DNA of 62,074 nucleotides from an uncultured Winogradskyella sp. (GTDB lineage Bacteria; Bacteroidota; Bacteroidia; Flavobacteriales; Flavobacteriaceae): positions 1 to 62,074 of the forward strand of contig CAJXLB010000012.1 in assembly GCA_913055905.1 (NCBI GenBank). The letters are read 5' to 3'. Below the pieces are notes generated by a model. That model was not told the DNA's origin. It ran no database searches and worked only from the letters and a program-made list of their open reading frames with translations. Below are positions 6,684 through 23,313 of the stretch, piece after piece. The translations under genes and the position numbers were made by a program. The stretch's first letter is position 1; each line of letters opens with the position of its first letter.

Positions 6684-7244
6684 ATGAAATCATTTAGACA
6701 ACACCCTGCAAAGGTCAACACTGGATCTATGGCTGACATCGCTTTTTTATTGCTTATCTTTTTTTTGGTGAGCACCACAATTTCTGCAGAAAAAGGTTTA
6801 CTAAGGAAGCTACCTGCCTATTGTGAAAATCCAGCCCAATGTGAAACAGACATTAAAAGAAGAAATCTATTGGAGATTACCCTAAATCGAAACAATGAAA
6901 TACTAATCTCTAGCCAACGAGCACAACTCTATGATGTCACAAATACTGTAGTAGCTTTCGTTGATAATAATGGTTTGGGACAATGCCACTATTGTAGTGG
7001 ACAACAATCAACAGACTATTCTGAACATCCTTTGAAAGCTGCCATTTTATTGCGATATGATGCAAAAAGCCGATACGACCACTTCGTTGCAGTACAAGAT
7101 AAAATTTCATTGGCGTATGACCAGTTGCGGGAAAACTACGCTAAAACCCACTTTAATACACCAATGGAAAAATTAGATGGAACAAGGTTGAATTTAGTAA
7201 AAGCTAAATATCCCATTAAACTTTCCGAAGTAAAGATTGAATAA
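6684..7244 (+). CDS. exbD: ExbD/TolR-family biopolymer transport protein (orphan)
   Basis: Residues 13-34 carry the ExbD signature: a polar stretch, SMADIAFLLLIFFLVSTTIS, with the proton-pathway Asp18 at the membrane entrance, then the 'LLRKLP' motif seen in Bacteroidota ExbDs. ExbD works with the ExbB ring to feed proton-motive force to TonB or Tol complexes. This 186-residue protein is longer than E. coli ExbD (141), and its periplasmic domain holds four cysteines (47, 53, 101, 104). No exbB or tonB lies next to it. The ATG at 6684 is chosen because the in-frame upstream ATG at 6642 adds 14 residues that do not belong to the family. Confidence 0.85.
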   Translation: MKSFRQHPAKVNTGSMADIAFLLLIFFLVSTTISAEKGLLRKLPAYCENPAQCETDIKRRNLLEITLNRNNEILISSQRAQLYDVTNTVVAFVDNNGLGQCHYCSGQQSTDYSEHPLKAAILLRYDAKSRYDHFVAVQDKISLAYDQLRENYAKTHFNTPMEKLDGTRLNLVKAKYPIKLSEVKIE

Positions 7245-7417
7245 TTGAAATAGGAGATTTACGGAGCAAAGCATCTATTTTCAATCGGACCTTACGCCCT
7301 ATTCTTCACTTAATTATCGTTAAAATATGTTAAAATAGTATTATGCTATACCAAGTACTGTAACAAAATTGTTTTATGCTCGTCTATATAGTGTAATCAA
7401 TTAAAAAACGAATAATC
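7245..7417. other. non-coding leader of the micro-ORF locus
   Basis: No gene of ordinary size is seen between exbD (ends 7244) and hsp20 (ends 7686); this first part has no convincing frame. It is AT-rich and probably carries the promoter for the two micro-ORFs that follow; no exact TAnnTTTG element was found. The rest of the gap holds the micro-ORFs and a terminator, listed separately. Confidence 0.4.
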
Positions 7418-7504
7418 ATGAGAACTTTAAACAACAATCAATTGACGAGCAATTTAGCAGAAACAAAAGCTTACGTTTGGAACAAGAAAAGACGTTACAG
7501 GTAA
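7418..7504 (+). CDS. candidate micropeptide 1 (28 aa, basic C-terminus)
   Basis: ATG to TAA encodes MRTLNNNQLTSNLA followed by 14 more residues ending NKKRRYR. The peptide is polar with a strongly basic tail and no membrane helix. It lies with a second micro-ORF between exbD and a perfect terminator hairpin on the same strand, which suggests a short transcript of about 250 bases. Both micro-ORFs begin MR-x-L. No known family comes to mind. The alternative is a small non-coding RNA in which these frames are accidental; the tidy ORF-ORF-terminator layout argues mildly against that. Confidence 0.4.
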   Translation: MRTLNNNQLTSNLAETKAYVWNKKRRYR

Positions 7505-7543
7505 CCACTCCACTGAATTCATCAATCATTAAATCAATTAGTT

Positions 7544-7612
7544 ATGAGAGCCTTATCTAAAATTGTCAATGCATCTAACAGTTTAGATGATGACTTAGAA
7601 AACATTAAGTAA
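7544..7612 (+). CDS. candidate micropeptide 2 (22 aa, acidic C-terminus)
   Basis: ATG to TAA encodes MRALSKIVNASNSLDDDLENIK, a polar peptide whose second half is acidic. It follows micropeptide 1 by 39 bases and ends about 20 bases before a 12-bp terminator stem. The opposite charge of the two peptides is notable but could be chance at this size. Coding status is uncertain. Confidence 0.4.
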   Translation: MRALSKIVNASNSLDDDLENIK

Positions 7613-7632
7613 TGAAAGTTGCAGAAAAGTAA

Positions 7633-7665
7633 AAAACCAATACGACGACGTATTGGTTTTTTTTT
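7633..7665 (+). terminator. strong rho-independent terminator after the micro-ORFs
   Basis: AAAACCAATACG (7633-7644) pairs with CGTATTGGTTTT (7649-7660), a perfect 12-bp stem with loop ACGA, and runs into a T tract. The A tract on the left side means it may also end the leftward hsp20 transcript, whose stop is at 7686. Confidence 0.9.
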
Positions 7666-7685
7666 GACTTAAGCTTGCCAATCTT

Positions 7686-8165
7686 TTAAGATACCTTAAT
7701 CTGTTTAAGAGGTTTTTTCTTAGCTTCATCGCGTTTTGGCAACTCAATGGTTAGAATTCCATCTGTATAAGTCGCCTTTATTTTTTCTGATATCACTGAT
7801 TTTGGCAAGGAGAAAGTTCTTTTAAATGAAGAATAACCAAATTCACGTCTTGTGTAATTATCGTTAACATCTTCATTTTCAGTTTTTATTTCTGCAGAAA
7901 TGGACAATAAGTCGTTATCCAGGTTAATATCAAAATCTGATTTTTTCAATCCTGGAACTGCCATTTCCACAATATAATCATCAGCTCTATCCTTAACGTT
8001 CACGGCTGGCAATGTCATTCCCGTATTGAAATTGGACATTAGACCGTGTTCAAAATTGTTTTCAAAAATATCATCGAGCCATGTAGCTAAGCTCGGCACT
8101 GATCTAAAACCTAAACCTAATTTTGAGTCAGTACCATTTTTCAAAGTTGGAATTAAATTACTCAT
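7686..8165 (-). CDS. small heat shock protein, Hsp20/alpha-crystallin family
   Basis: The 159-residue protein has the usual bacterial sHsp layout: a variable N-terminus (1-50), an alpha-crystallin domain (about 52-145) with PAVNVKDRADDYIVEMAVPG and the end motif GILTIEL (136-142), and a short lysine-rich tail ending LKQIKVS, where I-K-V is the IxI/V-like anchor used for oligomerisation. sHsps hold unfolding clients for refolding by DnaK/ClpB in the cytoplasm. The gene is alone on its strand; an 11-bp perfect inverted repeat lies 65-103 bases upstream of the start and may be an operator. Confidence 0.93.
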   Translation of the reverse strand: MSNLIPTLKNGTDSKLGLGFRSVPSLATWLDDIFENNFEHGLMSNFNTGMTLPAVNVKDRADDYIVEMAVPGLKKSDFDINLDNDLLSISAEIKTENEDVNDNYTRREFGYSSFKRTFSLPKSVISEKIKATYTDGILTIELPKRDEAKKKPLKQIKVS

Positions 8166-8229
8166 AAGATTTAAATTTTTTTGTTGTTAAACTAATATCA
8201 TAGCAACAAATAAAATGCCATATCACAAC

Positions 8230-8268
8230 AACTGAAAAAATTTCATAATTACTGTCATTTTTTCAGTT
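8230..8268. promoter_or_regulatory. 11-bp perfect inverted repeat upstream of hsp20
   Basis: AACTGAAAAAA (8230-8240) is repeated in inverse as TTTTTTCAGTT (8258-8268) with 17 bases between. It sits between the stop of the E1 gene (8294) and the start of hsp20 (8165). In the leftward direction no T tract follows it, so an operator or mRNA hairpin fits better than a simple terminator. It is not the HrcA CIRCE sequence. Confidence 0.5.
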
Positions 8269-8293
8269 AAAGCTCTAGTTATCAGTTAAAAGA

Positions 8294-10294
8294 CTAATAG
8301 TTGTATAAGGCAATTAAGGCTTGTTCAAATCTAGATTTAGAGAGGTATTGCTCTTCCAATTGAGAAGAAAATGGAATAGGTGTCTCTAAACTGCCTACGC
8401 GTTTTACAGGTGCATCTAAATATTGAAAACATTCCTCCATAATCATGGCAGAAATATCACTAGCAATTCCACCGAACAACGAATCCTCTTGAAGAACAAT
8501 TACCTTACCTGTCTTCTTTACAGATTTGATGATTGCGTCCTTATCCAGGGGTTGCAATGACCTTAAATCAATTAAATCGGCATCAATATGGTTGTGTTTT
8601 TCCAAAGACTCTAATGCCCAATGCACACCTGCCCCATACGTTATAATGCTAATACTTTCACCTTCTTTTAGCAGACTAGCTTTACCAAAAGGTAAGGTGT
8701 AATAACCTGTTGGCACCTCTTGTCGTATACTTCTGTACAAAGCTTTGTGTTCAAAGAACATAACCGGATTGGGATCGTTTATGGCAGTAGCCAACAATCC
8801 TTTGGCGTCGTAAGGAAATGCAGGATAAACTACTTTTAACCCAGGCGTTTTTGTAAACCAAGCTTCATTGGTCTGGGAATGAAAAGGACCAGCCGCTACT
8901 CCAGCACCACAGGGCATCCTTACAACCACATCTGCCTGTTGGCCCCAGCGATAATGCGATTTAGCCAAATAATTAACTATGGGGTTGAATCCAGAGGTTA
9001 CAAAATCTGAAAATTGCATTTCAACAACAGATTTCATACCTGCAATAGACAATCCCATTGCTGCTTCCACTATAGCAGATTCACAAATAGGCGTATTCCT
9101 TATGCGATCTTTACCAAATTGGTTTACAAATCCTTCAGTGATTTTAAAAACACCTCCATACTCTGCTATATCTTGCCCCATCAGGACCAAATTATCATAC
9201 TTCTCCAAGGATTGTTTTAAACCTTCTGAAATTGCGTCGATTAAACGTAGTTCTTTAGTTTCTCTATTTGGCTTAACTTCTTCATAATCATAAACTTTAT
9301 AGACATCACCTAACTCTTCACTTTCAGATGATTCAATGGGCTCTTCAGCAAATGCGATGTTTAAGGCACTATCTATTTCTGCCTTTATTTCAGCATTAAA
9401 GGACTCCTCTAATTCTGGTGTCAATATTTGTTTACTGAACAAGTAATTTCTGTAATTTTCAATAGGATCTTTGGCTTCCCAAGTTTCCATGAGTTCCTTT
9501 GGTACATATTTAGTACCACTGGCCTCTTCATGACCTCGACGTCTAAAGGTTTTAAATTCAATTAAAATTGGTCTTGGACGTTTTCTTATGCTTTCGGCTA
9601 GCTTTTTAACTTTTGTATACGTTTCAATAATGTTATTTCCGTCTAGAATAAAAGACTCCATTCCGTAGCCCTTTCCTCTATCTGCCAAATGCTTACAACG
9701 GTATTGTTCATTCGTCGGTGTTGAAAGTCCATAACCATTATTCTCAATGCAGAAAATAACGGGTAATTGCCACACCGCCGCAACGTTAAGCGCTTCGTGG
9801 AAATCCCCTTCACTAGTACCACCCTCTCCTGTAAATACTGCCGTAACATTGCCATTATTCTGCAAAAGATTTGCTAAGGCTATTCCATCTGCAACGCCCA
9901 GCTGCGGACCTAAATGTGAAATCATTCCCACAATTTTATAGTCTTGGGTACCAAAATGAAACGATCGGTCGCGTCCTTTGGTAAAGCCGCTGGCTTTTCC
10001 TTGCCACTGACCAAATAAGCGATGTAAAGGAATTTGCCTTGTAGTAAATACCCCAAGATTCCTGTGCATGGGCAAAATATATTCATTAGGCTTCAGAGCC
10101 ATTGTAACCCCAACAGATATGGCTTCTTGTCCAATACCAGAAAACCATTTGGAAATTTTTCCCTGCCTCAAGAGAATAAGCATCTTTTCCTCTATTAATC
10201 TCGGCTTTAGCATGTTTTGATAAAGCTTTAAAAGCGTTTTGTCGCTTAGGTTTCTCTTATCAAAATCGATATTGCTTTTGGTTATTGTTGGCAT
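8294..10294 (-). CDS. fused E1 alpha/beta subunit of a 2-oxoacid dehydrogenase (branched-chain type)
   Basis: This thiamine-diphosphate enzyme decarboxylates a 2-oxoacid and hands the acyl group to the lipoyl E2. The N-terminal half is E1-alpha, with the ThDP motif from GEGGTSEGDFHEALN to ENNGYG (a GEG form of the usual GDG), and the C-terminal half is E1-beta (GQDIAEYGGVFKITEGF, ETPIPFS near the end), joined by an acidic linker near residues 325-345. Such fusions are common in Bacteroidota and are usually annotated as 2-oxoisovalerate dehydrogenase; pyruvate as substrate is not excluded. E2 and E3 are not adjacent. I start at the ATG at 10294 (666 aa), since a TACATTTG element at 10316-10323 lies within the longer frame. 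Confidence 0.9.
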   Translation of the reverse strand: MPTITKSNIDFDKRNLSDKTLLKLYQNMLKPRLIEEKMLILLRQGKISKWFSGIGQEAISVGVTMALKPNEYILPMHRNLGVFTTRQIPLHRLFGQWQGKASGFTKGRDRSFHFGTQDYKIVGMISHLGPQLGVADGIALANLLQNNGNVTAVFTGEGGTSEGDFHEALNVAAVWQLPVIFCIENNGYGLSTPTNEQYRCKHLADRGKGYGMESFILDGNNIIETYTKVKKLAESIRKRPRPILIEFKTFRRRGHEEASGTKYVPKELMETWEAKDPIENYRNYLFSKQILTPELEESFNAEIKAEIDSALNIAFAEEPIESSESEELGDVYKVYDYEEVKPNRETKELRLIDAISEGLKQSLEKYDNLVLMGQDIAEYGGVFKITEGFVNQFGKDRIRNTPICESAIVEAAMGLSIAGMKSVVEMQFSDFVTSGFNPIVNYLAKSHYRWGQQADVVVRMPCGAGVAAGPFHSQTNEAWFTKTPGLKVVYPAFPYDAKGLLATAINDPNPVMFFEHKALYRSIRQEVPTGYYTLPFGKASLLKEGESISIITYGAGVHWALESLEKHNHIDADLIDLRSLQPLDKDAIIKSVKKTGKVIVLQEDSLFGGIASDISAMIMEECFQYLDAPVKRVGSLETPIPFSSQLEEQYLSKSRFEQALIALYNY

Positions 10295-10315
10295 ATGTAG
10301 ATTGTTGCGTCCATC

Positions 10316-10323
10316 CAAATGTA
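10316..10323 (-). promoter_or_regulatory. Bacteroidota -7 element (TACATTTG) for the E1 gene
   Basis: On the minus strand the octamer TACATTTG matches TAnnTTTG exactly and lies 21 bases before the ATG at 10294. It would leave a short 5' leader and excludes the longer reading of the E1 N-terminus. Confidence 0.5.
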
Positions 10324-10402
10324 ACAAAAATGGAATAATCTCACCGCTTATTAATTAAGTTATGATTATGACCTTAGGTTATTATTTCGTCTATATTTTG
10401 GT

Positions 10403-10410
10403 TAGATTTG
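10403..10410 (+). promoter_or_regulatory. Bacteroidota -7 element (TAGATTTG) for the 2OG-oxygenase run
   Basis: Exact TAnnTTTG match 27 bases before the ATG at 10438. Because the next four genes follow with overlaps or short gaps, it could drive all five. Confidence 0.5.
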
Positions 10411-10437
10411 TATATAAACTTAATTTTTTAGCTCGTA

Positions 10438-11388
10438 ATGGATAGAATACCAAGTGTAGATTTAAACGACTTTATTTCCGAAGACCCAAAACGAAAGCAA
10501 AAATTCATCGATGACATTGGCAAAGCTTATGAAGACATTGGTTTTGTGGCCTTGAAAGGTCATTTTTTAGACGACGAACTTGTAGACAAGCTTTACGCTG
10601 AGGTTAAAAACTTTTTCAACCTACCTCTCGAATCAAAACAACGCTATGAAATCCCTGGGATTGGTGGCCAACGCGGCTATGTTTCTTTTGGTAAAGAAAG
10701 TGCCAAAGGGAAAAAGGAAGGCGATTTAAAGGAGTTTTGGCATTTTGGGCAATATGTTGAAGACAATGACGCTTTAAAAAAGGAATATCCTGATAATGTC
10801 ATTGTAGAAGAACTTCCAGAATTCAACAAAGTAGGTAAAGAAGCTTATAGAATGCTTGAGAAAACTGCCAAATACGTTCTGCGTGCTTTGGCATTACATT
10901 TAGGTCTAAAAGAAGATTATTTTGACCCTTACATACACAACGGAAACTCCATTCTACGTCCCATACACTATCCGCCTATTTTAGAAGAACCAAAAAATGC
11001 AGTGAGGGCAGCCGCTCATGGCGACATTAATCTCATAACCTTATTGATGGGTGCCCAAGGTAGAGGCCTTCAAGTTCTGCGACATGATGGAGAATGGATT
11101 GATGCCATTGCCGAACCTGATGAACTCATGATAAATGTGGGAGATATGCTCTCCCGCCATACCAATAATAGATTAAAATCCACGATACACCGCGTGGTTA
11201 ACCCACCACGGGAACTTTGGGGAACCTCAAGATATTCCATTCCGTTTTTTATGCACCCTGTGAGCGAAATGAAGCTCGATGTGCTAGAGAGTTGTGTTGA
11301 CAAAGACCACCCTAAACTTTACGACGATATTACGGCTGGAGAATTTCTTAACGAAAGGCTGGTTGAATTAGGATTAATCAAAAAGTAA
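10438..11388 (+). CDS. 2-oxoglutarate/Fe(II) oxygenase, isopenicillin N synthase family
   Basis: A 316-residue non-haem iron oxygenase. The double-stranded beta-helix facial triad is visible as His194-x-Asp196 (AAAHGDINLITLL) and His251 (STIHRVVNPP), with the 2-oxoglutarate-binding pair Arg265-x-Ser267 (TSRYSIPFF). The N-terminal DIOX_N part starts with the usual IPSVDLNDF. The family includes IPNS, ethylene-forming enzyme, gibberellin oxidases and many bacterial members with no known substrate; the substrate here cannot be read from sequence. It heads a run of five same-strand genes with gaps of 17 bases or overlaps. No secondary-metabolite genes surround it, so a primary metabolic role is more likely. 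Confidence 0.92.
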   Translation: MDRIPSVDLNDFISEDPKRKQKFIDDIGKAYEDIGFVALKGHFLDDELVDKLYAEVKNFFNLPLESKQRYEIPGIGGQRGYVSFGKESAKGKKEGDLKEFWHFGQYVEDNDALKKEYPDNVIVEELPEFNKVGKEAYRMLEKTAKYVLRALALHLGLKEDYFDPYIHNGNSILRPIHYPPILEEPKNAVRAAAHGDINLITLLMGAQGRGLQVLRHDGEWIDAIAEPDELMINVGDMLSRHTNNRLKSTIHRVVNPPRELWGTSRYSIPFFMHPVSEMKLDVLESCVDKDHPKLYDDITAGEFLNERLVELGLIKK

Positions 11389-18519: not shown

Positions 18520-19680
18520 TTATTTTAAGCTTTTTAGGATAAAATCTAAATTAGAATCGGTATTGTCGTTATGGATGTAGGCATCAGTGTAGTACTTTGG
18601 TGGTAAAGCCAATCCAAGGCCTTGGAGCTTTTTAATTGTGGATACATATTCTTGGCTCACCTTACCTGTTAGAAGCAGTCCTAAGTCCTCTTCAGAATTA
18701 GCATATTTATAAATATTTCTAATTCCCTTTAAATACAAATGATCCTTGGTGAAGCCTCCACCTCTGTGAACCCTTAATGTGATGGAAAAGGCCTTGTCCC
18801 TATTTAATTTATGCTGATTATGAAGCAAATGAAAAGTGTCTGAAAATGTATAACCTTTATGTAAACTATCCACTGCAATGACCCTAAATGCCAATTCCTT
18901 TAAGCGCTCTATAGTTAAGCAGCCACTCATAAATTCTGAATAAACAGCCAGCCCTTCTTGCGTTTCAACATTGTTTGGGAAACCGTTAGAAAACACCTTA
19001 AGTGGTTGATTAAGGCCATTAAAGGTAGTTACCATATGAACACCTATCTCATGATTGGTTAACACTTTAAGCTGATTTAAACTAAACTTATGGCTCTTGC
19101 GCAAGACTAATGTTTGGGTATTATTGAGAACCATAGCCGCTGCCGACAAGTTGTTAGAGATTTTTATTCGATACTTAAAATCGTAACGTTTGGAAAACTC
19201 ATCAAAATAGTCCCGAGCTTCCTGGGCATTATACATTGGCAACAGTTCTTCATTGAATTCAGAATCATCGAACCTTAATATAAATTTTGCGTTCTCCAGC
19301 GAACGCTCGGTAGGCGTACCAAAACTTTTTAAACTATTGAAATAAAACTTTCGTCCCTGGCCAATGGTTTCAATACATTCAATTAAACCAGAATATTCAT
19401 AGATAATGTCTTCGTATAATTGTCTAATGTCATCATCTTCTATACGCTCTAGTCGCTGAGAAAAAAACAACCGATGCAATTTGTATCCATTGAACCTGAT
19501 TTTTGGATAATTAAATTGAGGTTCATAATTGTATTTTGCCGCAAAGAATTTCTTTTTCTCCGAGGCAATATTCTGCGGATTAATGTAATTGAGCAATTCA
19601 ATATTCTTAACCAAGCGGTTGATATTGGCATCAATTTCAAAAAGTGATTGGAATTCTTGTGTTGTTTTAATCTGTGCCAT
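18520..19680 (-). CDS. DUF1704 'QEGLA' metallopeptidase-like protein
   Basis: The 386-residue protein shows the family name motif QEGLA at 241-245 and a zinc site His210-Glu211-x3-His215 (HEIGVH), an HExxxH variant of the gluzincin motif; Glu242 in QEGLA is the likely third ligand. The same family includes the eukaryotic tubulin tyrosine carboxypeptidase MATCAP, so removal of a C-terminal amino acid is a reasonable expectation. It is often annotated as 'flavohemoglobin expression-modulating', with little mechanistic meaning. It is the last gene of the gshB cluster; its ATG shares one base with the stop of the N-formylglutamate amidohydrolase-like gene. No signal peptide, so cytoplasmic. The substrate is unknown. 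Confidence 0.88.
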   Translation of the reverse strand: MAQIKTTQEFQSLFEIDANINRLVKNIELLNYINPQNIASEKKKFFAAKYNYEPQFNYPKIRFNGYKLHRLFFSQRLERIEDDDIRQLYEDIIYEYSGLIECIETIGQGRKFYFNSLKSFGTPTERSLENAKFILRFDDSEFNEELLPMYNAQEARDYFDEFSKRYDFKYRIKISNNLSAAAMVLNNTQTLVLRKSHKFSLNQLKVLTNHEIGVHMVTTFNGLNQPLKVFSNGFPNNVETQEGLAVYSEFMSGCLTIERLKELAFRVIAVDSLHKGYTFSDTFHLLHNQHKLNRDKAFSITLRVHRGGGFTKDHLYLKGIRNIYKYANSEEDLGLLLTGKVSQEYVSTIKKLQGLGLALPPKYYTDAYIHNDNTDSNLDFILKSLK

Positions 19681-20510
19681 TATGCTTTAAACCTATTGTA
19701 AAAATGTTTCGCGTGCTCAGGAATCAAGATTTTTAATTGACTTTCTACGGCTTCAACAACTTCAGGATATATAATTTGTTGGTATTCATCACAGTAAACT
19801 TTGGCAATTTCTGTAGCCAAGACTAAGGTATTACTAAAGGTATTGGTTATATACCTTAAGAAATAACCATTCCCGTAAAATGTGTCGTTTATTTTAGCTG
19901 TTTTCTTAATGCCATAAGGTAATTCTACACGCTCAAGATCTTTTCTCCAATCTTCTATGAGGTCACCAAATCTGGAATTATCTACATTTGTTGTACCCAG
20001 ATTCCACGTTGGCACTTCCCTCTCCCAGCGCTGCCAATTGTAGCTATGCATATCGTAAACGATACAAACACCAAATTTCTCCTCCAATTTTGAAATCAAA
20101 GTATTTACTACTTTATAAAAATTCTTATGCTTTTGTAAGCTGATGTTTTTTTCCTCCACTGAAAGCGGCTCTCTCCACAGTTGCTTCCCCCAAGCGGTTT
20201 CAAATACTGCCTCCTCTGGAAATCTATTTAGATCGTATTCGAAACGCGAGTCGCGTCCAGCTATAACAATGGGATGGGATTGTATCATCGTCTTTGTTTC
20301 AGGGTCTTCTTCATACCATCGGTCGTACTCTGAGTGCAAACATTTCTCCCATAGTGATTTTCTAAACTCATGCCCATCATGCACCGCAGCACAAACGTAG
20401 TGCACGTAATTGTCTATTTTTAAGGTAAAGGCATAATCATCTGATACGGCATGAAAGGTCTCTTCTGCCCTTATCTTATTGCAAATAGCATCTACTGAAA
20501 GTTTTTCCAT
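19680..20510 (-). CDS. N-formylglutamate amidohydrolase-family protein
   Basis: The 276-residue protein belongs to the FGase (HutG-type) metal-dependent amidohydrolase family: AAVHDGHEFR at the first metal site, HPIVIAGRDSRFEYDLNR in the middle, the second-site VYDMHSYN, and a conserved late NDTFYGNGYFLRY. The classic enzyme frees glutamate from N-formylglutamate in histidine breakdown. No hut genes are here; instead it sits between a TerB-like gene and a DUF1704 peptidase with one-base overlaps on both sides. The real substrate is therefore more likely an N-acylated or glutamyl compound made by the GshB-like ligase of the same run. That last point is inference. Confidence 0.87.
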   Translation of the reverse strand: MEKLSVDAICNKIRAEETFHAVSDDYAFTLKIDNYVHYVCAAVHDGHEFRKSLWEKCLHSEYDRWYEEDPETKTMIQSHPIVIAGRDSRFEYDLNRFPEEAVFETAWGKQLWREPLSVEEKNISLQKHKNFYKVVNTLISKLEEKFGVCIVYDMHSYNWQRWEREVPTWNLGTTNVDNSRFGDLIEDWRKDLERVELPYGIKKTAKINDTFYGNGYFLRYITNTFSNTLVLATEIAKVYCDEYQQIIYPEVVEAVESQLKILIPEHAKHFYNRFKA

Positions 20511-20845
20511 TACATAGCTTTAAATAACCTATTTAGACATTGAAGCATAATTTGTTCGTTAATGTTGAAATCGCCATCCGAGAAGAACAAAGTCTTGATA
20601 TCTGAAAGTAACAAGTCTACATCATTTTTATCGTAATTATGCTGCTTTAGGCTGGACAATATCTTTTGAATCCCTTGATAATCATTATCGTTATCAAATT
20701 CATCATGGATTTCCTGAAAAGTGTAAACATCTACTTTTGAAAGAATACTATTGCGCTCTCTGTTGTTTTCTTTAAAATCTGAATTGGCGGCAAATAGCAA
20801 AATATAGGCTACCAGTTCGTCTCTAGTCCAATCGACCCTATTCAT
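20510..20845 (-). CDS. small TerB-like helical protein
   Basis: The 111-residue all-helical protein resembles the TerB fold: a first helix hairpin (DELVAYILLFAANSDFKENNRE) and a second with the acidic pattern SDIKTLFFSDGDFNINEQIM, where 'S-D-G-x-x-x-x-x-E' matches the metal-binding repeat of TerB. TerB proteins act at the membrane with TerC and with metal-linked stress pathways. The two acidic motifs are partial, so the assignment is a structural guess. The stop overlaps the start of the amidohydrolase by one base, and gshB ends 43 bases before it, so it belongs to the same transcript. Confidence 0.6.
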   Translation of the reverse strand: MNRVDWTRDELVAYILLFAANSDFKENNRERNSILSKVDVYTFQEIHDEFDNDNDYQGIQKILSSLKQHNYDKNDVDLLLSDIKTLFFSDGDFNINEQIMLQCLNRLFKAM

Positions 20846-20888
20846 TTATTTGAAACTTTGAAATTAAAACCATTTTAGAACCAAAACC

Positions 20889-21926
20889 TTAAGCTTCATC
20901 AACAGTTCTTCGAAGTCGCGCTCTTCTATCAAAAGCTTGAAGTTGATCCATAACCTTGCTTTCTAAAAAGTCTATGACCTTTTCTTCTACTTTGGTTTTG
21001 TTTTTATAGACCTTATTGATATAAGTTATTCCGCCAGGCGACATCACGTTAACTTCTACAAGCTTACCGCCTATAACATCGATCCCAACAAAATAAAGAC
21101 CGTCCTTAACCAGTTTCGGGCCTATTTGCTTACAAAGAGCTTTTTCTGCTTTTGTTAAAGAATGCTTTTGCACAGAACCTCCAGCTGAAACGTTAGACCT
21201 GTGGTCATCTGATCCCGGTACACGTTTCATAGCTCCTACGGGTTCACCATTCAGCATTAAAATCCTTACATCACCTTTGTCTGCTCCTTCAATATAATCT
21301 TGAAGAATGACGTAATTGGAAGATCCATCAGAGTTTGTAATGTAAAAATCCAATAGTGACGTTATATTACTCATCGCAGACTTTTCAATAAGTATAACAC
21401 CAGAACCGCCAAAACCATTAAGGGGCTTTAGAATCATCTTATCCGATTTAGATTCCCTAATCTGTCTGATAAGGTATTTTTTATTCTTTGAAACATGCGT
21501 GTTTGGTATAATATTGCTGTGGGCATCTCCAAAAGCAGCAGTATAAAGCTTATTATTGGCTTCGCGCATTCCTTGCAGTGAATTGACAATAAAAACATCA
21601 TCCTTTACAGAATCAAGGAAATTAAGCATCAAAGGATCTAATGGAGGGTTTGCCCGAAAAAATATAGCATCGAAACCTGCCAGAGGTAACATCTCTTCCC
21701 TTAACTCTGCTTTTTTATAAAATGATTTTAAGGTTGTTGGGACCTTATCCATCCTGCCGATAACATTACAGAAGGCGTTGGTTACACTATTTCTTATGGT
21801 TAAGTTCGCAGGAGTACACATTGCAACACCATGCCCACGCTTAACACATTCCTTAATCAAAGCAAGACTTGTATCATTTTCTGGGTCGATGTTTTCCCAT
21901 GGATACATAATGAAGCAAATATTCAT
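20889..21926 (-). CDS. gshB: glutathione synthetase-like ATP-grasp ligase
   Basis: GshB joins gamma-glutamylcysteine and glycine with ATP. This 345-residue protein aligns well by eye with E. coli GshB: start ICFIMYPWENIDPENDTS, FFRANPPLDP, the lysine-bearing MILKPLNGFGGSGV of the ATP-grasp, DVRILMLNGEPVGAMKRVPG, and the metal-site region FVGIDVIGGKLVEVNVMSP. The family ending 'NVTSPT' is NVMSPGG here, and there is about 30 residues of extra C-terminal helix. gshA is not nearby. The operon partners (TerB-like, amidohydrolase, DUF1704 peptidase) are not standard glutathione genes, so the peptide product may be a related compound. Confidence 0.88.
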   Translation of the reverse strand: MNICFIMYPWENIDPENDTSLALIKECVKRGHGVAMCTPANLTIRNSVTNAFCNVIGRMDKVPTTLKSFYKKAELREEMLPLAGFDAIFFRANPPLDPLMLNFLDSVKDDVFIVNSLQGMREANNKLYTAAFGDAHSNIIPNTHVSKNKKYLIRQIRESKSDKMILKPLNGFGGSGVILIEKSAMSNITSLLDFYITNSDGSSNYVILQDYIEGADKGDVRILMLNGEPVGAMKRVPGSDDHRSNVSAGGSVQKHSLTKAEKALCKQIGPKLVKDGLYFVGIDVIGGKLVEVNVMSPGGITYINKVYKNKTKVEEKVIDFLESKVMDQLQAFDRRARLRRTVDEA

Positions 21927-21990
21927 AATGCTAACGATTTGATTGGTTATTAATAAAGTTAAAGGTAACTAATTTTTAACCGATTATAAA

Positions 21991-23313
21991 TTATTTTACA
22001 GCATGGTAATTATCATCCCATTCCTTAGGATGCGGTTCGTGAAGCTTGTCTAAAGATTTAGCTACAAGCATTGATACCGTGGCATCTCCAGTAACATTAA
22101 CGACAGTCCTACACATATCCAAAGGTCTATCTACAGCAAAAATCAGTGCTAGGCCAATAGGCAATAATTCCGAAGGAAAATTAATGGACTCCAACACAAT
22201 AACCAGCATTACCATGCCTGCGCTAGGTACTGCAGCACTTCCTATAGATGCTAAAAGCGCTGTGAGTACAATGACAAGTTGATTCGTAAATCCTAAACCT
22301 TCTGGCCAAATAACCTGCATAATAAAAACAGCGGCAATTCCTTGGTAAAGACTAGTACCGTCCATATTTACCGTAGCACCAACAGGTAAAACAAATCCAG
22401 ACACTTCCTTATCTACGCCAATATGCTCTTCAACACGTTCCATAGTAACCGGTAAGGTTGCCGCACTACTACTCGTTGAGAACGCCAACAATTGGGCAGG
22501 ACTAATCCTATTCAAGAACCATAATGGGGATTTTTTGGCATAGATTCTAACAAGAAGCAAATAAAAACCAATCATAAGCGCTAATCCTGCAACTACGCAA
22601 AGGGCGTACTGAAGTAATTTTAGCAATATTTCGGTATCATCAAAAGCTATAATAACATTCGCCATTAAAGCAAAAACAGCATAAGGTGCAAAAAGCATAA
22701 TGACATCGACCATTTTCATGACTACTTCATTAAGAGAGTCGAAAATATCTACCATTGGTTTGGCCTTTTCCTCTGGGATGAGCAATAAGCATATGCCAAC
22801 AAAAAGAGCAAAAAAGATTACCTGCAGCATCTTGGTGTCTCCCATGGATTGGATAATATTACTAGGGAAAATATCTACCAACGGCTGCAATGGTCCAGCA
22901 CCTTTAGTAGCAGTAGCCATATTTATCTTGTCAACTACACCTGCATCATTTTCATATTTTAGTTTGATGTTTTCAATGGTATCCGCTGGCATGCCAGTTC
23001 CTGGTTTCACCAAATTAACGATTGACAACCCAATGACGATAGCCACCATGGTGGTACCTATATAAATAGAAATGGTTCTAAGGCCCATATCCCTTATTTT
23101 CGAAATATCCTTTAAATCAGATATGCCTTTAATAAGTGATGCCAAAATCAGAGGAACGGCTATTAGTTTCAGGAGATTGATAAAAATGGTTCCAAATGGT
23201 GCTATCCAATCGGCTACAAATTTCTGACCACTCACTGCATTCATGATAAAGCCAAAAATGATGCCCAATAGCATGCCAATAATTATTTTCCAGTGTAACG
23301 GGATTTTCTTCAT
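21991..23313 (-). CDS. dicarboxylate/amino acid:cation symporter (DAACS/GltP family)
   Basis: The 440-residue membrane protein shows the GltPh/EAAT architecture: multiple spans, the serine-rich re-entrant hairpin FSTSSSAATLPVTM (HP1), the sodium-site NMDGT motif in VGATVNMDGTSLYQG (TM7) and the second hairpin ASIGSAAVPSAGMVML (HP2), then DRPLDMCRTVVNVTGD in TM8 carrying the substrate-binding Asp and Arg region. It imports glutamate, aspartate or C4-dicarboxylates with Na+ or H+. It lies between aroC and gshB on the same strand with gaps of 41 and 64 bases. Supplying glutamate to the downstream ligase is an attractive but unproven link. Confidence 0.93.
   Translation of the reverse strand: MKKIPLHWKIIIGMLLGIIFGFIMNAVSGQKFVADWIAPFGTIFINLLKLIAVPLILASLIKGISDLKDISKIRDMGLRTISIYIGTTMVAIVIGLSIVNLVKPGTGMPADTIENIKLKYENDAGVVDKINMATATKGAGPLQPLVDIFPSNIIQSMGDTKMLQVIFFALFVGICLLLIPEEKAKPMVDIFDSLNEVVMKMVDVIMLFAPYAVFALMANVIIAFDDTEILLKLLQYALCVVAGLALMIGFYLLLVRIYAKKSPLWFLNRISPAQLLAFSTSSSAATLPVTMERVEEHIGVDKEVSGFVLPVGATVNMDGTSLYQGIAAVFIMQVIWPEGLGFTNQLVIVLTALLASIGSAAVPSAGMVMLVIVLESINFPSELLPIGLALIFAVDRPLDMCRTVVNVTGDATVSMLVAKSLDKLHEPHPKEWDDNYHAVK

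What the first reader, a model, noticed from the sequence alone, without database searches (positions are those of the whole stretch)
18520..23313. gshB / TerB-like / N-formylglutamate amidohydrolase / DUF1704 peptidase cassette: a possible undescribed ligase-hydrolase system
Seen: three one-base overlaps or short gaps (19680, 20510, 43 bases) tie a GshB-like ATP-grasp ligase, a small TerB-like protein, an FGase-family amidohydrolase and an HExxxH DUF1704 peptidase, with a glutamate/dicarboxylate symporter just upstream. Known: ATP-grasp enzymes build peptide bonds, FGases remove N-acyl groups, and DUF1704 includes MATCAP, which trims C-terminal residues. Inference: the set makes, edits and removes a glutamyl or peptide modification, on a small molecule or on a protein tail, and the usual names (glutathione, flavohaemoglobin) miss its purpose.
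Basis: partly seen in the sequence, partly recalled or inferred. Interest (0 to 1): 0.7.

Follow-up and report, generated by a model that had tools for sequence, protein, structure and literature searches.

The report
Bacterial peptide ligase–trimmer gene cassette
A marine bacterium carries a tightly packed, widely conserved set of genes that pairs an enzyme of a bond-making kind with two of bond-cutting kinds, one related to the human enzyme that trims tubulin tails; what they act on is unknown, and the database names (glutathione, flavohaemoglobin) probably mislead.

Summary
The four ORFs and junctions are real; only the label 'TerB-like' is unproven. The core is three genes: GshB-like ATP-grasp ligase, FGase-family amidohydrolase and MATCAP (DUF1704) metallopeptidase. 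It is complete and in order in 74 of the 80 nearest relatives (the other 6 are cut by contig ends). In 296 sampled Bacteroidota, MATCAP is in 16; the matching GshB is in 15 genomes, all among those 16 and within 2.5 kb. FGase and MATCAP are one polypeptide in one Bacteroidota genome and two Photobacterium records; a second arrangement lies on rhizobial plasmids. The window's genome has no detected gshA, and all 16 have the bacillithiol gene bshC, so ordinary glutathione synthesis is unlikely. In published RNA data from Photobacterium damselae, 'GshB' and 'QEGLA' genes with neighbouring locus tags rise 38- and 28-fold at low salt. My reading: a ligase–trimmer module that builds and shortens a short glutamyl-type peptide, analogous to RimK/RimB; substrate unknown. 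The linkage is robust; the chemistry is inferred. A 2009 amidoligase survey that I could not read may have noted it.

The parts
18520..19680 (-). MATCAP/DUF1704 metallopeptidase, 386 aa; HEIGVH at residue 210, QEGLA at 241, FTKDHLYLKG at 310
   Evidence: PF08014 336 bits; human KIAA0895-like, 7z5g, E 7e-6; motifs
19680..20510 (-). FGase-family amidohydrolase, 276 aa
   Evidence: PF05013 54.5 bits; model pLDDT 90.7; best matches FGase structures 2q7s and 2odf, then metallo-carboxypeptidases at weaker scores
20510..20845 (-). small all-helical accessory protein, 111 aa ('TerB-like', unproven); in some relatives one ORF with a rhodanese-type protein
   Evidence: no family at cut-off; (49 of 80 loci; joined with the rhodanese-type gene in 6)
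20889..21926 (-). GshB-like ATP-grasp ligase, 345 aa (NF009110 subfamily)
   Evidence: GSH-S_ATP 186 bits; NF009110 462 bits over cut-off 408; TIGR01380 235 under cut-off 299; NF003573 284 over cut-off 272; 1gsa, E 3e-40
21991..23313 (-). sodium:dicarboxylate (glutamate/aspartate type) symporter, frequent but not obligatory neighbour
   Evidence: PF00375 402 bits; within 200 bases upstream of GshB in 62 of 80 loci

Best explanation
The core of the finding is a three-enzyme peptide ligase–trimmer module, not glutathione synthesis. Shown: the GshB-like ligase, FGase and MATCAP genes are kept together in Bacteroidota, Photobacterium and rhizobia, and FGase and MATCAP are sometimes one polypeptide. 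Inferred: the ligase joins an amino acid (most likely glutamate or another small residue) to the carboxylate of an acidic or gamma-glutamyl acceptor; MATCAP removes residues one at a time from the C-terminal end, as its human relatives do on tubulin tails; and FGase hydrolyses the remaining N-acyl-glutamate-type bond that a chain-shortening carboxypeptidase leaves behind. The balance of the three sets the length of the chain and frees the acceptor again. The acceptor (a small molecule, perhaps a thiol given the rhodanese-type gene, or a protein tail) is not known. About 0.8 that it is a dedicated non-glutathione ligase–hydrolase module; about 0.4 that the chain is glutamyl; the division of labour between the two hydrolases is a guess.
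For: 74 of 80 nearest loci hold all three genes, same order and strand; the 6 others reach a contig end. 15 of 16 MATCAP genomes in a 296-genome sample carry this GshB within 2.5 kb, and no genome without MATCAP has it above 390 bits; FGase is adjacent in 13 of 16. FGase and MATCAP form one ORF in G045 and in two Photobacterium records. FGase-long MATCAP-GshB on Mesorhizobium, Shinella and S. meliloti plasmids. Two loci hold both GshB types around one FGase-MATCAP pair. In both loci with MATCAP and GshB but no FGase (L111, L113) an AstE/AspA-family gene lies beside GshB. PF04262 gshA in 0 of 16, GCS2 absent in the window's genome; BshC in 16 of 16. Two sampled genomes without MATCAP have a GshB near a GCS2 protein; both GshBs pass TIGR01380 and, like E. 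coli's, have SPT where 28 of 28 cassette ligases aligned have SPG or TPG. HExxxH in 29 of 29 MATCAPs checked (L112 not included). TMCPs shorten glutamate chains but leave branch-point glutamates (PMC10499314, passages). RimK/RimB is a tested ligase–peptidase pair (PMC11957791, passages), and the window's genome has RimB-RimK-AstE/AspA, the same kind of trio. In P. damselae 'GshB' A0J47_RS17020 and 'QEGLA' A0J47_RS17025 rise 38.4- and 27.5-fold (PMC10308900, passages).
Against: No substrate, product or activity is shown for any bacterial member. NF003573 (glutathione synthase equivalog) is passed at 283.8 over 272 bits, and most E. coli GshB motifs compared are kept, so a glutathione-like product cannot be dismissed. 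GCS2 proteins exist in 6 of 16 genomes: three (G130, G234, G186) pass a 'carboxylate-amine ligase' equivalog, but the one in G231 passes a 'glutamate--cysteine ligase' equivalog, 464.7 over 409 bits. The SPT/SPG contrast rests on 3 control sequences. MATCAP also occurs without these partners (G186, Pseudoalteromonas, Legionella). The rhodanese-type gene (44 of 80 loci) hints at sulfur chemistry rather than a plain glutamate chain. The AstE neighbour in L111 is on the opposite strand. The 80 loci are close relatives, not independent samples.
Confidence: 0.5

Rival explanations
1. Small thiol-peptide pathway: the ligase makes a glutathione-like or other cysteine-containing peptide, the rhodanese-type enzyme moves sulfur to or from it, and the two hydrolases recycle it.
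For: High similarity to E. coli GshB (1gsa, E 3e-40) with most motifs kept; a double-rhodanese gene in 44 of 80 loci between GshB and FGase, in one ORF with the TerB-like domain in 6; DCC1-like thiol-disulfide oxidoreductase next door; a GCS2 protein over a glutamate-cysteine ligase cut-off in one of the 16 genomes.
Against: No PF04262 gshA in 16 of 16 genomes and no GCS2 in the window's own; bacillithiol synthase BshC in 16 of 16; no such rhodanese gene in the window's cassette or in the Aquimarina and rhizobial loci examined; the DCC gene is on the other strand.
Confidence: 0.25
2. Protein-tail writer/eraser: the ligase adds residues to the C-terminus or a side chain of a cellular protein and MATCAP and FGase remove them, like tubulin tyrosination/glutamylation or RimK/RimB on ribosomal protein S6.
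For: MATCAP homologues act on protein tails (PMC10499314, passages); the FGase model resembles metallo-carboxypeptidases after FGases; RimK/RimB precedent (PMC11957791, passages); RimK (52-fold) is in the same low-salt response as the presumed cassette genes (PMC10308900, passages).
Against: The window's cassette encodes no evident target beyond the 111-aa accessory protein; the ligase scores best with glutathione synthetases. Protein docking by bacterial MATCAP was not examined.
Confidence: 0.15
3. Scavenging pathway: imported gamma-glutamyl or N-acyl-glutamyl peptides are broken down by MATCAP and FGase for glutamate, the symporter imports glutamate, and the ligase salvages an intermediate.
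For: Glutamate/dicarboxylate symporter directly upstream in 62 of 80 loci; FGase and AstE/AspA act on N-acyl amino acids in known pathways (family knowledge, recalled).
Against: The ATP-consuming ligase is the most strictly linked partner (15 of 16 genomes), odd for catabolism; no symporter lies upstream in the Aquimarina loci (one, L081, has it 1.6 kb downstream on the other strand) or beside the rhizobial and Photobacterium cassettes examined.
Confidence: 0.08
4. Ordinary glutathione biosynthesis, as the automatic annotation says.
For: GSH-S domains and NF003573 score over cut-off; in G231 a GCS2 protein passes a glutamate-cysteine ligase cut-off.
Against: gshA searches, BshC, TIGR01380 under cut-off, the two sampled genomes with GshB near GCS2 both lacking MATCAP, and the persistent linkage to two hydrolases.
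Confidence: 0.05

Closest known systems
RimK-RimB(-RimA) ribosomal protein S6 polyglutamylation system
   Same: ATP-grasp ligase and dedicated peptidase in one operon, a natural hybrid protein known, opposing activities shown (PMC11957791, passages); in this genome RimB-RimK sit with an AstE/AspA enzyme, giving the same ligase-peptidase-amidohydrolase trio
   Different: The cassette ligase is of the GSH-S family, its peptidase is a MATCAP metallopeptidase rather than a retropepsin, and FGase takes the AstE/AspA place
Eukaryotic tubulin-tail enzymes TTL/TTLL, CCP and MATCAP/TMCP
   Same: MATCAP is a sequence relative; ATP-grasp ligase and carboxypeptidase-like fold (weak) recur
   Different: No tubulin, the ligase and FGase are at most distant fold relatives, and no protein target is known
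Glutathione synthetase GshB (E. coli 1gsa)
   Same: Same two Pfam domains over full length, about 31% identity
   Different: No gshA found in the window's genome, below the TIGR01380 cut-off, SPG instead of SPT near the C-terminus, linked to two hydrolases
Second Bacteroidota amidoligase cluster: C39-like peptidase, RLAN ATP-grasp, GCS2, FGase
   Same: Ligases plus FGase plus (in L124, L125) a peptidase in one cluster
   Different: Different ligase and peptidase families; includes GCS2
Amidoligase-peptidase neighbourhoods of Iyer et al. 2009 (Mol Biosyst 5:1636; content recalled, text not seen)
   Same: General theme of ATP-grasp ligases linked to peptidases
   Different: Whether the GshB-FGase-DUF1704 set is in it could not be checked

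Membership tests
MATCAP/DUF1704 (PF08014) | profile over curated cut-off, full length | tested here: met
   336.4 bits against 27, profile 1-363 of 365
MATCAP/DUF1704 (PF08014) | HExxxH with downstream glutamate (QEGLA region) | tested here: met
   HEIGVH 210 and QEGLA 241 in the window; HExxxH in 29 of 29 sequences checked, exact .EGLA in 25 of those 29
MATCAP/DUF1704 (PF08014) | carboxypeptidase activity | not testable with these tools
   seen only for eukaryotic members (PMC10499314, passages)
TIGR02421 QEGLA equivalog | score over cut-off 338.65 | tested here: not met
   window 315.5; Photobacterium 459.9, Mesorhizobium 373.6 and Pseudoalteromonas 343.5 pass
FGase (PF05013) | profile over cut-off and FGase fold | tested here: met
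   54.5 bits against 28.9; model best matches FGases 2q7s, 2odf
HutG N-formylglutamate deformylase (TIGR02017) | equivalog cut-off 278.75 | tested here: not met
   17.4 bits
Glutathione biosynthesis | a gamma-glutamylcysteine ligase in the genome | tested here: not met
   PF04262 and PF04107 not found in the window's genome; PF08886 and other forms not searched; among the 15 other MATCAP genomes, G231 has a candidate
Glutathione biosynthesis | GshB equivalog scores | tested here: inconclusive
   TIGR01380 235 under 299.05, NF003573 283.8 over 272
TerB | sequence profile match | tested here: not met
   no Pfam or NCBIfam family at cut-off
TerB | helical TerB-type fold | tested here: inconclusive
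   2h5n, E 0.16, TM about 0.6; that 2h5n is TerB-like is recalled
Rim system | RimK ligase and RimB retropepsin | tested here: not met
   cassette ligase and peptidase are of other families; the genome's own rimBK lies elsewhere

The most novel reading that the evidence does not exclude
A bacterial tail code: MATCAP's original job was to trim a glutamyl chain written by a GshB-like ATP-grasp ligase, with FGase removing the branch-point residue, on a conserved bacterial acceptor (protein or coenzyme); the animal tubulin-trimming enzyme would then descend from a bacterial writer/eraser module that spread between marine Bacteroidota, Vibrionaceae and rhizobia.
Probability: 0.2. Interest if true: 0.85.

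Novelty: new variant of a known kind. Interest (0 to 1): 0.55.

Why it matters
The cassette would give the prokaryotic setting of a peptidase family whose tested members, in the papers I saw, act on tubulin, and it offers a directly testable ligase–trimmer trio. It also warns that 'GshB' and 'flavohaemoglobin expression-modulating' annotations are probably wrong here; in one study a strongly induced 'GshB', with a locus tag next to that of 'QEGLA', was discussed as glutathione synthetase (PMC10308900, passages).

Tried and rejected
A MATCAP::GshB fusion in G231 (L112, ORF 8622-11366) was rejected: MATCAP lies in another frame (ORF 7975-10050), so it is a shadow ORF. A phage link was rejected: one record of 50,697, Pseudomonas phage Y1, 34% over 44% of the query. 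Promoter and terminator scans gave no more than shuffles. PDB sequence searches with the FGase and small-protein profiles gave nothing useful. The first annotation of S. meliloti L120 missed FGase because of shadow ORFs; tblastn found it at 7150-7902. A second Fisher test, on FGase, used a wrong count for the other genomes (24 where one search gives 26) and is not used. I could not sample whole genomes outside Bacteroidota, so the spread there rests on 7 of the 127 plasmid records with a MATCAP match: five with partners, two with MATCAP alone in the stretch seen. The N-terminal part (about 235 residues) of one long MATCAP matched no Pfam family and was not pursued. On recheck I recounted order and strand of the 80 loci and the symporter (62 directly upstream; 65 anywhere in the locus) and looked into the four strong GCS2 proteins; the last gave one result against my reading (G231), now told.
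Full report
Origin and observation. The window's nearest named relatives are Winogradskyella (Flavobacteriaceae), up to 90% identical in MATCAP. MATCAP, FGase, GSH synthetase-type ATP-grasp and SDF symporter are over Pfam cut-offs; the 111-aa gene reaches no family cut-off.

Conservation. Of 240 confirmed relatives in genome contigs the best 80 were kept. 74 of these 80 have GshB, FGase and MATCAP at 85% coverage or more, in that order and on one strand, with at most 3.1 kb between GshB and MATCAP. In the 6 others (L031, L037, L066, L067, L075, L095) the upstream side stops at a contig end. In a sample of 296 Bacteroidota, MATCAP is in 16. The GshB subfamily NF009110 has 17 places above 390 bits in 15 genomes (14 of these over the curated cut-off), all among those 16 and within 2.5 kb of MATCAP. 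FGase is adjacent in 13 of 16; the exceptions are G053, G273 and G186. A same-genus genome, G226, has no MATCAP, so the cassette is patchy.

Architectures. Type A (the window): GshB, [rhodanese-type gene], [small protein], FGase, short MATCAP. Type B: FGase, MATCAP with an N-terminal extension of about 235 residues, and a GshB of about 29% identity to type A. G103 and G118 are hybrids with both GshBs. G045 (L103) and two Photobacterium records (L116, L117) have FGase and MATCAP in one polypeptide of 662-667 aa (both Pfam domains for L103 and L116; L117 by BLAST only). Mesorhizobium and Shinella plasmids and S. meliloti pSymB carry type B. MATCAP without these partners occurs in G186, Pseudoalteromonas and Legionella. 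In the two loci that lack FGase but keep GshB (L111, L113), an AstE/AspA-family gene is beside GshB, on the opposite strand in L111.

Accessory genes. A rhodanese-type gene is in 44 of 80 loci by BLAST; the two members scanned are double rhodaneses, and one is 3-mercaptopyruvate sulfurtransferase-like (NF008557 216 bits, under its cut-off 250). The small protein is in 49 of 80. The two are one ORF in six loci (L055, L058, L059, L061, L065, L068); in L034 the small protein and FGase share one ORF. The window's cassette has no rhodanese gene; the rest of its genome was not searched for one. The symporter is within 200 bases upstream of GshB in 62 of 80 loci, in 49 of them at 60% identity or more to the window's.

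Glutathione. PF04262 is absent in 16 of 16 MATCAP genomes, and PF04107 (GCS2) in 10 of 16, including the window's. Of the six with GCS2, three (G130, G234, G186) have one over a 'carboxylate-amine ligase' equivalog cut-off, and G231 has one over a 'glutamate--cysteine ligase' cut-off (464.7 against 409 bits), which counts against the reading in that genome. In G211 and G186 a GCS2 lies in another FGase cluster, and the coordinates suggest the same in G171. BshC is present in 16 of 16. Two sampled genomes without MATCAP (G194, G076) have a GshB one or two ORFs away from a GCS2 protein; both GshBs pass TIGR01380 at 407.7 and 406.7 bits, against 235 and a cut-off of 299 for the window. At the C-terminal motif 28 of 28 cassette ligases aligned have PG where E. 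coli and these two have PT. Against: the window ligase passes NF003573.

Structure. FGase model: pLDDT 90.7; best matches FGases 2q7s and 2odf (TM about 0.6-0.7), then metallo-carboxypeptidases such as 4a37 at weaker scores (E 2.7e-4, TM about 0.3-0.4). Small protein: pLDDT 87.6, best 2h5n, E 0.16.

Mechanism. TMCP/MATCAP enzymes release C-terminal residues of tubulin and shorten glutamate chains but leave branch-point glutamates (PMC10499314, passages). RimB removes glutamates that RimK adds (PMC11957791, passages). The window's genome has RimB-RimK-AstE/AspA; among the 10 of 16 MATCAP genomes with a RimB match, 7 have all three together, 2 have RimB-RimK without a detected AstE and 1 has RimB and RimK apart. 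The cassette repeats this logic with other families: ligase, chain trimmer, N-acyl amino-acid amidohydrolase. That is the basis of the model; substrate and direction are inferred.

Expression. In P. damselae at 1% against 3% NaCl, A0J47_RS17020 (GshB) rises 38.4-fold and A0J47_RS17025 (QEGLA) 27.5-fold, with neighbouring locus tags, and RimK 52-fold elsewhere (PMC10308900, abstract and passages). The authors discuss GshB as glutathione synthetase. That these genes are the cassette is inferred from the tags and from two other Photobacterium records.

Literature. Searches for DUF1704 (1 paper, on malaria parasites, not opened), QEGLA and 'flavohemoglobin expression-modulating' (1 paper each, PMC10308900), FGase with ATP-grasp (0), FGase with glutathione synthetase and gene cluster (0), and a mixed set (4, listing only apart from PMC11957791) showed no description of the cassette. 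The library is open-licence only, and Iyer et al. 2009 was not held.

Noticed in passing
L098 (window's genome C1, about 632-635 kb): RimB-RimK followed by an AstE/AspA amidohydrolase; the trio recurs in 7 of the 10 RimB-bearing genomes among the 16.
   Followed up: partly
L124 4325-8717, L125 3229-7324, L126 5678-9044: Another Bacteroidota cluster: RLAN-type ATP-grasp, GCS2 and FGase, with a C39-like peptidase in L124 and L125 (not all members scanned in L125 and L126).
   Followed up: partly
L055, L058, L059, L061, L065, L068: The small 'TerB-like' domain shares one ORF with a rhodanese-type protein.
   Followed up: partly
L009 715-2544 and other long MATCAPs: An N-terminal extension of about 235 residues; in L009 it matched no Pfam family.
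   Followed up: no
PMC10308900, genes A0J47_RS17020 and A0J47_RS17025: A 38-fold induced 'GshB' discussed as glutathione synthetase probably belongs to this cassette.
   Followed up: partly
L116 12001-13029 and L117 12001-13029: The Photobacterium type A ligase is 60% identical to the window's, twice the type A to type B identity, suggesting transfer between phyla.
   Followed up: no
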